39,204 bases of DNA from contig SKOR01000079.1 of assembly GCA_007119965.1 (NCBI GenBank), positions 1 to 39,204 on the forward strand, written 5' to 3'. Of the stretch, positions 5,655-15,441 are shown one piece after another (positions within the stretch are counted from its first letter, which is position 1; the number at the start of each line of letters is the position of its first letter). This DNA is from Syntrophomonadaceae bacterium. Lineage in GTDB: Bacteria; Bacillota; Dethiobacteria; DTU022. The notes beneath the pieces are model-generated. The model had not been told where the DNA came from. It saw nothing but the letters and a program-made list of their open reading frames with translations, and did not search any database. The position numbers were made by a program, and so were the translations under genes.

Positions 5655-7718
5655 TTATCCGAGAGCATCTGCCACACCTGAAGCGCGCTCCATTGTGCGC
5701 CCTGTCCCGGTTTCCAGCACCTCGTCTGTGCCGACAATCACCACCGAATTTTTCGCCCTTGTTACTGCAGTGTAGAGAAGCTCGCGCGTGAGAGGCCGTA
5801 CATGTGCTTCGGGAAGCAGAATTGCGACGTTTTCGTATTCTGATCCCTGAGCCTTATGAACCGTTGTCGCCCAGGCAAGTTCAAGCCTGCCCCGCAGCGC
5901 TTCCAGTGGAAAGGCTGCGAAACTGCTGCCGCGGGGGAAAACTGCCATAGGTTCAGCTAAATGGTGCCCTGTCCCCGTCCCGGCTGCTACTTTAAGCACC
6001 AGGCCCGAGTCGCCGTTGTAGAGGCGCAGTGAATAATCATTACGCGTTACCATAACGGGTTCACCGATCAGGAAATACAGGCTGCCGTCACCGCCGTGCT
6101 CTTTGTCCCGCTCTTTGAGCCACCGCAAATGGAACCAGTTATTGGCGGATTCTGCCCCTGTTCCTCCCGCAGTAAGGCGGGTTGCACACAGGATCCTGAA
6201 CTTTTCGTAGTGGGCTGTGATTTCTCGCAGATCGCCCGTAGTCTGCTCATCGAAGCCTGAATGCCCTGCAGCATAAGCCCGGGCGAGTCGCTGGTCCAGG
6301 TCCGGCATTGAACCCCTGAGGCGTTCATGCCATTTCCCGAAAAAGGCCTCCCGCTGGACTGCGTTTCCCGGCTGCAGATGTTCGGCCCCTTCAAATCGAA
6401 TTTCTGAAGGCTGCCTTCTAACGGCAGGCGCCCTGTTTCTGCCTGCTGCAGCCGGAGGAATTCCTTCGTTGATCGCTGCCGCCAGGCCGAGGATCTTTTT
6501 CCCATTTGAATCCTCTTCCCTGGCCCGGTAGCTTTTCTTCAGGGCTACTACACGGCCCGCTTCGTTAGCGGTCCGGGAGCGGCACAAATCGCGCATAACC
6601 GCTCCCGCCTCGATCGAGGGAAGCTGGTCGGCATCCCCCAGGAATATCACGCGGGCTTCTGGCTGCAGGGCTCTCAGCAGGTGGTCCATCAATGCCAAAC
6701 CGATCATCGAACTTTCATCAACTATTACAAGTTGCTCTGAAAGGGGGTTGTTTTCATTATGGCGAAAGCGTTCCTGGCCTGGCGAGTAACCGAGCAGGCG
6801 GTGCAGGGTTAAGGCAGGAGGGCATGCTCCGGCCAGACGGTTATCGCTTACAGCGGCGAATGGAATTGCAGCAAGGTGTTCTTCAACAGACTGGCGCATT
6901 TTGTCGGCGGCTTTTCCGGTAGGAGCAGCAAGCGCTATCGATTCCGGGGACGGTCTGCCGGTTCGGGCCAGCACCCGGAGGATGCTTGCTACGATGGAGG
7001 TTTTTCCGCTGCCGGGACGGCCGCTGACCACGGTTATCCGGCCGCTGAGGGCAGCGCGCACGGCTTGTTTTTGTTCTTGGTCCAGGGTAATTGCTCCCCG
7101 GGGGCCTGCCGGCGGTGAATCAAAAACCTCGCGCAGGGCAATTTCAGCTGCTGCATCCACTTTCTCCGGACCAGGTATCAGATCCGGGCCGTACGGTTCG
7201 CAGATCCTTTTGCGCAGGGCTGCCCCGACCCGGGCTTCCAAAACATGGAGTTTTTGAGTGTAGAGACAGCCGTGATCGATAATTAATGGGCGGTAGTCCC
7301 CCGGGCCGCCAAAAACCCCGGAGAGGCCTGAAGCATCTGCTTCGCTGCCCGCCTGCTGTGCTTCGATGAGCAAATCGCCAATTGCGGTGCGCTCACTGTC
7401 CGTTACGCTTAATTCATCCAGGATCCGCCCGAGGGATCTGTCAAAGGCAAGCGGCAGCCTGGTGCTGCCACCGGCAGAAAAGGCCTGGACCGCAAGGATT
7501 AATAGGACCAATGCCCTTTGCTTTTCCCGGACAGTTTCTTCACCGGCGAGGCGGGCAATTTCCCAGGCAAGAAAAATATTCTCGATCCCCAGGTCAAGGT
7601 TTTCCGCACGGGGAACCAGGTCGCCGGGGAAGTGCATGGTAGTTTCCGGATGGCCTTTCTTAAGGGCGACAGACCTGGCGCCGCAGCCCATCGGGGTCCA
7701 GTTATTTATTGCTGACAT
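5655..7718 (-). CDS. recD: Exodeoxyribonuclease V alpha subunit RecD
   Basis: A 687-residue superfamily 1B DNA helicase, the fast 5'-3' motor of RecBCD. After an N-terminal RecB-interaction region (about 1-210) come motif I GRPGSGKT (233-240), a DESSM Walker B (334-338), and near the C-terminus the TTVHKAQGSEY and YTAVTRAK motifs of the second helicase domain. E. coli RecD is somewhat shorter (about 608). ATG at 7718 has GGAGCAGG just upstream, and the gene starts 35 bases after the recB stop. It is the last gene of the recC-recB-recD unit. The N-terminal region assigns it to true RecD rather than the free-standing RecD2 helicase, and so does its place in the operon. Confidence 0.93.
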   Translation of the reverse strand: MSAINNWTPMGCGARSVALKKGHPETTMHFPGDLVPRAENLDLGIENIFLAWEIARLAGEETVREKQRALVLLILAVQAFSAGGSTRLPLAFDRSLGRILDELSVTDSERTAIGDLLIEAQQAGSEADASGLSGVFGGPGDYRPLIIDHGCLYTQKLHVLEARVGAALRKRICEPYGPDLIPGPEKVDAAAEIALREVFDSPPAGPRGAITLDQEQKQAVRAALSGRITVVSGRPGSGKTSIVASILRVLARTGRPSPESIALAAPTGKAADKMRQSVEEHLAAIPFAAVSDNRLAGACPPALTLHRLLGYSPGQERFRHNENNPLSEQLVIVDESSMIGLALMDHLLRALQPEARVIFLGDADQLPSIEAGAVMRDLCRSRTANEAGRVVALKKSYRAREEDSNGKKILGLAAAINEGIPPAAAGRNRAPAVRRQPSEIRFEGAEHLQPGNAVQREAFFGKWHERLRGSMPDLDQRLARAYAAGHSGFDEQTTGDLREITAHYEKFRILCATRLTAGGTGAESANNWFHLRWLKERDKEHGGDGSLYFLIGEPVMVTRNDYSLRLYNGDSGLVLKVAAGTGTGHHLAEPMAVFPRGSSFAAFPLEALRGRLELAWATTVHKAQGSEYENVAILLPEAHVRPLTRELLYTAVTRAKNSVVIVGTDEVLETGTGRTMERASGVADALG

Positions 7719-7753
7719 CGCACCTGCTCCTTTCGCACCTGCTTACTCCATGC

Positions 7754-14400: not shown

Positions 14401-15441
14401 CGCAGGCGTATCTGCATCGAAGAGACCGAAAGGATCTTCATGACCTGTTTCTCCCGAAAATGTCCAGAGGCGGTTGGAACGCCGGTTTATTTCCCGATCC
14501 AGGCGGTGAAAAAATTCGCGGTCGGTTTCTACATCTTCCCAGAATTCGGCGCAGGGGTTTAAAGCGTAAATTCTCAGGGTGCAGGCTTCCCCCATCCGGG
14601 CAAACAGGTGTTGAAATATTCTCGCTACATAAGAAACACCAAAGATATGGACAGGCGGCAGTCCCTTGCTTTTAATTTTCCTGAACAGTGCATCATTGAG
14701 AGCCAGCTGATCGAGTGTAGCCCAGGAGCCTCCTTCTTCCGGCGGGTTGCTTTCCAGGATGCCGTTTTCACCGAAGACCGCCTTCCATAGAGCGCGCTGC
14801 CAGGTAACAGTGGAGGTAAGGGCGGGATCGGCAGATGCCGGGTCGGCGAAAGGGCTGTCTGCTGAGCCGTACCCGGCGCCAGTCCCCCGCCAGGATGAGA
14901 TCATTTCCGGGCGTGAATAGGTATATTCCTGGAACAGGTAAGCGATGCGTGAAGCCAGTTGGACGCGGCGGATGTCGGCGCCATCTGCCGCGATATGCCT
15001 GTCGAAAGCAGTTTTGGCCATGGCAGGGTTAACCCCGGGCGGTGCGGATGGATGGCTGGTCCCGTTGCCGGCATGACTCCCCGTACTCTCCAGGTACCTC
15101 CGGACCGGCTGTAGCTCCGTTTGGCAGAGTATTTTCCGGTTTAAAAGAACAGCAAGAACAGCCGCTTCAACAGTATCGAGATCAACAAGTTTGAAATCAC
15201 CGGGGCAGGTTTCGGAAACAGTCTCACCGATGAAGCGCTCCAGTCTTCTGAAACGAAGGTTTGCCGCTATGCCGGAGGCCTGGGCCAGACCCAGGCGAAT
15301 CCAGGTTTCCATGTTCCGGTTGGGAGTTACCAGTTCTACGGGTTCGAGCGGGTGTGCACCCCCGTCCCGCCACCGGGAGAGGCTTTCGGACAGGTCATCC
15401 AGAAGGCGTTCGGTTTTATTTGAATAAACCAGCTCAATCAT
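11497..15441 (-). CDS. recC: Exodeoxyribonuclease V gamma subunit RecC
   Basis: A 1314-residue RecC, longer than the E. coli protein (about 1120). In RecBCD it splits the duplex and scans the 3' strand for Chi. The N-terminus (ELVYSNKTERLLDDL, then a PNRNMETWIRLGLA stretch) is typical of RecC, as are the central LRFSDIAVIV, PFRVIFVLGLGEGLFP and ERDRYMFLE motifs. The C-terminal part contains ISLSTLRRFLECP, the start of the degenerate nuclease-like domain that handles Chi. ATG at 15441 has AGGAG 8-12 bases upstream. It is the first gene of the operon. Chi-contact residues cannot be judged by eye, so the Chi sequence of this organism is unknown. Confidence 0.92.
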   Translation of the reverse strand: MIELVYSNKTERLLDDLSESLSRWRDGGAHPLEPVELVTPNRNMETWIRLGLAQASGIAANLRFRRLERFIGETVSETCPGDFKLVDLDTVEAAVLAVLLNRKILCQTELQPVRRYLESTGSHAGNGTSHPSAPPGVNPAMAKTAFDRHIAADGADIRRVQLASRIAYLFQEYTYSRPEMISSWRGTGAGYGSADSPFADPASADPALTSTVTWQRALWKAVFGENGILESNPPEEGGSWATLDQLALNDALFRKIKSKGLPPVHIFGVSYVARIFQHLFARMGEACTLRIYALNPCAEFWEDVETDREFFHRLDREINRRSNRLWTFSGETGHEDPFGLFDADTPALRYWGRPGREHVRLLGELTDCDFKSAFSDPAESDRGLLHKLQQDIMNREPERKREPQPGGPEEGAVPAGLPDESINLVAAPSIRREVEWVADEIWRLVRDDRPGEGQMPLRFSDIAVIVNSAGREEYLPQIETVFAASHNLPGSVSDLPAAAGSRVIEAMNLLLELPFGRFSRVEMLALISHPAVIGRLEDVTPGDLADQAEALGIVFGADHSDHGGTYIDEDVYNWDQGIRRLALGAFMTGRKSGEERTFEADGGRWLVEEVSGSAVNTAARFGLLSRSLLADARFVRDHRMTLTDWAGFYTAQIDAYLHIEDDADARDRLRLIRSLAKLENMDRGFEVSGRVAAEIAGRAIETLSGGSGQYLAEGVVVSSFLPMRAIPFRVIFVLGLGEGLFPASGLRDALDLRAARRRAGDVDPSERDRYMFLETLLCTRERLYLSYVRRDEQTGDPLQPSAIVQELLHMLEHGYLGEEKVKELFIEPPLRRFDEPAVFEDSFTDEARVEARVREVARDWRNRAYRVPAGGTLSTAPNPIERGNELAAIRRVASQEAWKSLSEMLVLPGEPPGAAPVTATARTGSLEDEGAVEAPINISLSTLRRFLECPMQGWASAMLGLTEMEDDLADREEEDFEVGRLIETGLLRAVLLDSSAAGTDPAELYDQRTAQLRLAGKVPIGILGRVNRARHLRIISGWSSILEEFQSAGESETVHKAISTPLLRVRFGHSGQQGPAETILDPLSLEVALEGIGKPKRVVPVRINGLTEGLVNDRLVSVTFQPKKPPAQKNGNTLASAFRYLLRGIVDHAVLSAAGEAGTRERQVLVCYAGAAGETGRLRLKLLPLEQERARSWLAAVATDLLRDSHAYLMPCEAVFLAYYEQMKTITRGKKGSEKSGAIISGLPGADVQSLLDGEFLRSKVVQMAEKERAVFSSLWGPVPLPRNYQPPTADQAARNVWRRFGPLFEDITGLEGF

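What the first reader, a model, noticed from the sequence alone, without database searches (positions are those of the whole stretch)
5655..15441. Complete RecBCD operon in a Bacillota-like genome
recC, recB and recD are intact and adjacent, with helicase and nuclease motifs preserved. Most Bacillota use AddAB for the same job. The recC-recB junction overlaps by one base and recB-recD are 35 bases apart, so it is a working unit. This points to old lateral transfer or replacement of AddAB, and the Chi sequence is unknown because RecC is diverged and about 190 residues longer than in E. coli.
Basis: partly seen in the sequence, partly recalled or inferred. Interest (0 to 1): 0.5.

Follow-up and report, generated by a model that had tools for sequence, protein, structure and literature searches.

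The report
Imported RecBCD DNA-repair enzyme in Bacillota
A Bacillota bacterium related to soda-lake sediment species carries a complete RecBCD broken-DNA repair enzyme, probably acquired from distant bacteria, where most of its wider relatives carry AddAB; the enzyme type is known, but its patchy spread inside one family of this phylum is unusual.

Summary
recC (11497-15441), recB (7754-11497) and recD (5655-7718), minus strand, are intact; recC and recB overlap by one base, recB and recD lie 35 bases apart; helicase and nuclease residues are kept.

In the window's class (97 genomes) true RecC occurs in 21 of 43 genomes of the window's family and 0 of 54 others, 36 of which pass the canonical AddB cut-off. 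A phylum sample (398) shows RecC in two genomes, both of this family; a sample of another class (398, Bacilli by my inference) shows none. Family RecB and RecC each form one clade within a set of divergent, mostly Myxococcota, RecBCDs, so lateral gain is well supported; the donor is provisional. Inside the family RecC does not follow genus lines.

Corrections: canonical AddAB was detected in none of the 43 family genomes; nine members without RecC carry a divergent AddAB instead. RecBCD in a firmicute has a printed precedent (Bacillus halodurans, Rocha 2005).

Nine of twelve E. coli RecC positions reported to affect Chi differ, and E. coli Chi is not enriched in 703 kb of this genome. No convincing Chi candidate was found. 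New occurrence of a known enzyme.

The parts
11497..15441 (-). recC, 1314 aa, first gene of the operon; AGGAG-like ribosome site upstream
   Evidence: TIGR01450 1.7e-102, PF04257 4.2e-49, PF17946 2.6e-8; upstream sequence read
7754..11497 (-). recB, 1247 aa from the ATG at 11497 (ORF opens at TTG 11500); helicase plus C-terminal nuclease, LDWKSD motif
   Evidence: TIGR00609 1.6e-167, PF00580, PF13361, PF12705; equivalents of H956, D1067, D1080, K1082 kept; junction
5655..7718 (-). recD, 687 aa, RecD1-type helicase, Walker A GRPGSGKT
   Evidence: TIGR01447 5.2e-98 over cut-off; motif
3749..5494 (-). phosphoglucose-isomerase-like gene next to recD; the pairing recurs in some relatives (synteny marker)
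   Evidence: NF007080 5.1e-191 to positions 394-946 of 949; next to recD in 3 of 10 relatives' loci that hold recD (L002, L010, L012)
15442..15732 (.). intergenic region between recC and the divergent cobB (15733-17118, +); probable promoter region of the operon (inferred, no promoter scan run)

Best explanation
This is a complete recCBD operon for a RecBCD helicase-nuclease (exonuclease V). By homology to E. coli RecBCD it binds double-strand ends; the RecB and RecD motors unwind the DNA; RecC splits the strands and scans the 3' strand; the single RecB nuclease degrades DNA until a genome-specific Chi-like sequence is met and RecA is loaded. Shown: intact genes, operon layout, kept motor and nuclease residues, and no second RecBCD or AddAB detected in the 96.6% complete assembly. 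Inferred: the biochemistry, and that it is this organism's main double-strand-break end processor. It was gained laterally by part of one Bacillota family from a lineage with the divergent RecBCD type seen here mostly in Myxococcota, and has probably since passed between genera. Its Chi is probably not the E. coli octamer.
For: Families and motifs. Own genome: one PDDEXK_1 match, in RecB; the single AddB-model match lies in RecC; of 6 AddA-model matches the one listed is RecB, the other five are weaker than the printed list. Distribution: RecC in 21 of 43 family genomes, 0 of 54 others of the class; canonical AddB over cut-off in 36 of 97, 0 of 43 in the family; in 398 phylum genomes RecC only in G000 and G019; in 398 genomes of the class of G117 none, best 44 bits. 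RecB tree: family RecBs one clade (SH-aLRT 100) in a 31-row set (99) whose other 14 rows are 13 Myxococcota and L029, separate from AddA (100). RecC tree: family clade 100, in a 39-row set (100) of the same kind. A HxYxxPCEAVF motif near the RecC C-terminus is shared with Myxococcota L191, L192, L193, L204 and not found in E. coli RecC. RecC of genus g2 is not one clade (AU p 7e-13), nor of g1 (p 2e-4). Shared flanks with the congener L002. E. coli Chi: 27 seen, 23.5 expected in 703 kb.
Against: Donor sampling covered only Myxococcota, Fibrobacterota, one Spirochaete and gammaproteobacteria. Both large trees are quick searches without bootstrap, with uneven composition and some long branches; L038, L188 and several Fibrobacterota were left out of the RecB tree. 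RecC and RecB score under the NCBIfam equivalog cut-offs. MAG binning can fake transfers: four contigs of this clade sit in genomes labelled Nitriliruptoria, Wenzhouxiangella, Dojkabacteria and Halobacteroidaceae, and the g1 split rests on one 5.2-kb contig. Placing g7 and g11 outside the crown in the RecC tree is not rejected (AU p 0.078). The recD-isomerase pairing is present in only 3 of 10 relatives' loci that hold recD. No expression or activity data.
Confidence: 0.85

Rival explanations
1. RecBCD was ancestral to this order or class and was lost in the other families, so no lateral gain is needed.
For: RecBCD spans many genera of the family, and recD-isomerase synteny is shared by g1, g4 and g17.
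Against: 0 of 54 genomes of other families in the class have RecC; 36 of them pass the canonical AddB cut-off; the family clade is nested within mostly Myxococcota sequences.
Confidence: 0.07
2. The contig is foreign (mis-binned) and not part of a Bacillota genome.
For: Contigs of this same clade turn up in MAGs of other labels; the assembly's contamination estimate is 4.6%.
Against: The same cobB, phosphoesterase, K-channel, BrkB, MFS and isomerase neighbours flank recCBD in congener L002; RecC is found in 21 genomes of the family, on contigs up to 114 kb.
Confidence: 0.03
3. The complex is a RecBCD but serves mainly as an anti-phage or annealing nuclease, with another pathway doing recombinational repair.
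For: PMC6452273 (passage) says actinobacterial RecBCD seems to act in single-strand annealing; the relative G040 holds RecC and a divergent AddAB.
Against: No second AddAB-like system was detected in this genome; a PADLOC scan of the three proteins gave helicase-type models for RecB and RecD and none for RecC. RecFOR and other pathways were not searched.
Confidence: 0.1

Closest known systems
E. coli RecBCD (exonuclease V)
   Same: Three subunits, helicase and nuclease residues, single nuclease in RecB
   Different: 29-39% identity; no ptrA between recC and recB; RecC 192 aa longer; 9 of 12 reported Chi-affecting positions differ
Divergent RecBCD of Myxococcota (L022 UBA5297, L191/G969, L193/G922, L192/G980)
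   Same: Gene order C-B-D, 36-37% RecC identity in blast, same supported set in both trees, shared C-terminal RecC motif in L191-L193
   Different: Different phylum; family-specific residues such as the RecD Walker A GRPGSGKT
RecBCD of Bacillus halodurans
   Same: RecBCD instead of AddAB in a firmicute, as stated in PMC1193525 (passage)
   Different: Sequence not available here; relation to this operon untested
AddAB (canonical Gram-positive, and the divergent forms of this class)
   Same: Same job by established knowledge; AddA is homologous to RecB
   Different: Two subunits; the 17 AddA rows group apart from the 45 RecB rows with support 100

Membership tests
RecBCD | recC, recB and recD all present and intact | tested here: met
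RecBCD | RecB has helicase motifs and PD-(D/E)XK nuclease residues | tested here: met
   Equivalents of H956, D1067, D1080, K1082 kept; residue roles recalled
RecBCD | RecC has a nuclease-like fold without an active site | tested here: met
   No PDDEXK_1 match in RecC; G-I-V-D kept but no D-x-K in the region aligned after it; alignment only, no structure
RecBCD | RecD is a helicase of the RecD1 type | tested here: met
   TIGR01447 329 bits over 310; RecD2 model 274 bits against its 500
RecBCD | RecB and RecC score over NCBIfam equivalog cut-offs | tested here: not met
   560 of 696 and 344 of 583 bits; 0 of 97 class genomes pass for RecC. A curated naming score, not a structural or functional feature
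RecBCD | RecB groups with RecB, not AddA | tested here: met
   SH-aLRT 100
RecBCD | Response to a Chi sequence | tested here: inconclusive
   E. coli Chi not enriched; no candidate stands out
RecBCD | ATP-dependent exonuclease and RecA loading | not testable with these tools
   needs purified enzyme
AddAB | AddB subunit present | tested here: not met
   The only AddB-model match in the genome is a short stretch of RecC, 22 bits; the divergent AddB query also matches only RecC, weakly

The most novel reading that the evidence does not exclude
A RecBCD of the divergent, mostly myxobacterial type has displaced AddAB in part of a Bacillota family and still moves between its genera as an operon, bringing a Chi specificity of its own, so that related genera with RecBCD and with divergent AddAB form a natural experiment on how a genome acquires a new Chi.
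Probability: 0.35. Interest if true: 0.55.

Novelty: new member of a known kind. Interest (0 to 1): 0.36.

Why it matters
If borne out, it is a case in Bacillota where the double-strand-break processing enzyme was exchanged for a non-orthologous one. Relatives with each enzyme would allow a direct test of whether Chi sites change after the enzyme is swapped, and of how a large three-subunit repair enzyme survives lateral transfer.

Tried and rejected
Chi search: octamer statistics with Markov models and codon-shuffled genes, on 703 kb of this genome, with 500 kb of E. coli K-12 as positive control. The control ranks GCTGGTGG 17th (order 4) and 3rd (codon shuffle) but only 1360th at order 6, so the order-6 test has no power. 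In this genome it ranks 17,406th (order 4), 47,132nd (order 6) and 33,399th (codon shuffle). Many top octamers of the codon-shuffle test share a CCTGG core and look like codon context; I name no Chi candidate.

Second Bacillota occurrence: L029 (Bacillota MH_R1_5) lies outside the family clade in both trees. Mis-binning cannot be excluded, so it is not counted.

Considered and rejected: window contig as contamination (shared flanks); RecB as a mislabelled AddA; ancestral RecBCD. Plasmid carriage: RecC in the plasmid collection gave 20 records at 20-32% identity, none covering 80%. Literature on displacement in Clostridia: no paper held all five terms. Cromie 2009 was not held.

Rows dropped: the RecB tree left out L038 (by an oversight in my group list), L188, rows with under 700 matched residues (such as L025) and most Fibrobacterota. 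In the RecB residue table the column called fibro/spiro also holds AddA rows and is not used here.
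Full report
What is there. The window carries recC, recB and recD in that order on the minus strand, intact, with a one-base recC-recB overlap and 35 bases between recB and recD. A ribosome-binding-like AGGAG precedes recC. Family models recognise all three, RecD over its curated cut-off, RecB and RecC below theirs. Pairwise identity to E. coli K-12 is 29.4% (RecC), 32.1% (RecB) and 39.1% (RecD) of aligned columns. In RecB the Walker A and DEFQD motifs and the residues equivalent to H956, D1067, D1080 and K1082 are kept. In RecD the Walker A is GRPGSGKT; of 10 other family RecDs 9 have the same R and one a K, and all 10 have the S, while the 26 rows of other groups have G and T there. 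RecC keeps traces of a nuclease fold but no D-x-K motif in the aligned region. Motif names and roles of the numbered residues are recalled.

Which organism. brought 26 contigs of the family clade, with RecC 46-75% identical in the best segment; 22 are labelled Syntrophomonadaceae or Bacillota, and many isolate names point to soda-lake sediment (papers of that kind seen as a search listing). Four bear other labels (Halobacteroidaceae, itself Bacillota; Nitriliruptoria; Wenzhouxiangella; Dojkabacteria) and are probably mis-binned; the Wenzhouxiangella genome has a second RecC over the cut-off at 1059 bits. A 676-aa stretch of the genome's RpoB matches best four PDB sequences that I recall as Bacillota (8i23, 7l7b, 6wvj, 8x6f; 914-980 bits), ahead of chains I recall as actinobacterial (819 and less) and of E. 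coli (741) (the table does not give most organism names).

Distribution. In 97 genomes of the class, true RecC (E below 1e-20) is in 21 of 43 genomes of the window's family, with a further 77-aa N-terminal fragment at a contig end in G041, and in 0 of 54 genomes of other families, whose weak matches (E 6e-7 or worse) lie mostly in AddB-sized frames. The canonical Gram-positive AddB model is over cut-off in 36 of 97, none of them in the family; the best family score is 68.5 bits. The AddA model is over cut-off in 37 of 97, and no family genome is among the over-cut-off matches listed. Nine of 43 family genomes carry a close relative of the G023 divergent AddB (E 1e-180 or less) and none of these 9 has true RecC; two more (G028, G040) carry a distant one, and G040 has RecC as well. 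G024, and perhaps G004, has yet another AddAB-like pair. Among the 22 family genomes at least 90% complete and at most 5% contaminated: RecC 12, the G041 fragment 1, close divergent AddAB 5, distant divergent AddAB without RecC 1 (G028), the G024 pair 1, neither 2 (G029, G038). In 398 genomes sampled from the phylum, true RecC is found only in G000 and G019, both of this family, while four other family members in that sample lack it; in 398 from the class of G117 (which I take to be Bacilli; unnamed) 125 have weak matches, the best 44 bits. Bacillus halodurans was not knowingly among them. The own genome has one PDDEXK_1 match; no AddAB was detected in it.

Origin. The RecC tree (67 rows, quick method, no bootstrap) makes the family sequences one clade of 22 rows (SH-aLRT 100), inside a 39-row set (100) with 15 Myxococcota rows, L025 (unlabelled bacterium) and L029; apart from E. 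coli, Wenzhouxiangella and seven Myxococcota rows, six of which pass the RecC cut-off (100); and from Fibrobacterota with a Spirochaete (97). The rows nearest the family clade there are L196 and L025, both on long branches. The RecB tree (62 rows) agrees on the family clade and its set and separates RecB from AddA (100), though L196 is not next to the family in it. Only phyla I could reach were included, so the donor group is provisional. In 146 genomes of the phylum of L022, 33 have some match and 6 pass the RecC cut-off.

History inside the family. An RpoB tree of 36 of the 43 genomes puts 15 of 17 rows marked RecBCD (G041 counted) in one 23-row clade (100); the other two (G019 in g7, G027 in g11) lie outside it among AddAB-bearing and other lineages. 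Counting RecBCD against AddAB-bearing members needs 4 changes; counting members with neither as lacking RecBCD needs 9. In the RecC tree genera g2 and g1 are each split, with monophyly rejected (AU p 7e-13 and 2e-4). The g2 split involves contigs of 114, 31 and 24 kb; the g1 split rests on one 5.2-kb contig. This points to exchange between genera, or to binning errors. Transfer into g7 and g11 is only suggested (AU p 0.078). recD followed by the isomerase gene occurs in the window, L002 (g1), L010 (g17) and L012 (g4), that is in 3 of 10 relatives' loci holding recD; in L008 the isomerase lies on the other side of recC, and in the other six it is not seen in the 1-2 kb held after recD. The congener L002 shares the other flank too, so the operon is resident there. 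Seven divergent AddA proteins of this family group with those of family f4 of the same order (100), which suggests that the divergent AddAB was there first and RecBCD came later; this is inference.

Chi. A passage of PMC5959072 lists twelve RecC residues affecting Chi recognition in E. coli. At these positions the window keeps three (L134, R142, D705). Six of the twelve are constant among family rows with letters, two more are the same in 14 of 16, and four vary. Several family residues, such as P at 38 and R at 40, are also the commonest in the divergent Myxococcota rows, and the canonical Myxococcota rows differ from E. coli at several positions too. The same passage says P. syringae keeps these residues yet has another Chi, so they do not fully predict it. 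The paper's D137 reads Q in the K-12 sequence used here. E. coli Chi is not enriched (27 seen, 23.5 expected at order 4; 20 seen, 21.9 expected after codon shuffling), while the same tests flag it in 500 kb of E. coli at order 4 and by codon shuffling, though not at order 6. No octamer in this genome can be put forward with confidence.

Literature. Rocha 2005 (PMC1193525, passages) states that AddAB is almost ubiquitous in firmicutes and that Bacillus halodurans has RecBCD instead. Bernheim 2019 (PMC6452273, passages) does not list RecBCD among the firmicute components analysed. PMC7644769 (passages) gives the RecC-tunnel model of Chi recognition. (listings of titles and abstract starts) showed no paper that announces RecBCD in this family, and one search listed none; only the papers named were opened. 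B. halodurans is, as I recall, an alkaliphile like soda-lake bacteria; whether that matters is untested.

Verdict. A genuine, probably working RecBCD in an unusual host, gained laterally: a new occurrence of a known enzyme, of moderate interest mainly as a possible natural enzyme-replacement experiment. On rechecking I lowered the probability of the novel case from 0.40 to 0.35, because only half of the twelve Chi-affecting positions are constant in the family.

Noticed in passing
L238 (G040), L244 (G050), L228-L241 and other class genomes: Divergent AddAB-like pairs (AddB-like about 970-1180 aa frames, AddA-like about 1020-1170 aa) occur in this class, in places beside canonical AddAB (e.g. 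G050, G074, G075) and once beside RecBCD (G040). Their role is unclear.
   Followed up: partly
3749-5494: The gene beside recD matches only positions 394-946 of 949 of a bifunctional transaldolase/phosphoglucose isomerase model, i.e. the isomerase part stands alone.
   Followed up: no
5655-7718: RecD Walker A is GRPGSGKT in the window and in 9 of 10 other family RecDs (the tenth has K for R); the 26 rows of other groups have G and T at those two positions.
   Followed up: partly
L016, L019, L023: Short contigs with this family's recC and, in two of them, recB sit in genomes labelled Nitriliruptoria, Wenzhouxiangella and Dojkabacteria, probably mis-binned.
   Followed up: partly
L029 (Bacillota MH_R1_5): A RecCBD operon of the divergent type outside the family clade, in a genome labelled Bacillota: either mis-binned or a second Bacillota occurrence.
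   Followed up: no
G029 (family genome, 97% complete, about 60 contigs): Neither RecC nor an AddB-model match was found in it.
   Followed up: no
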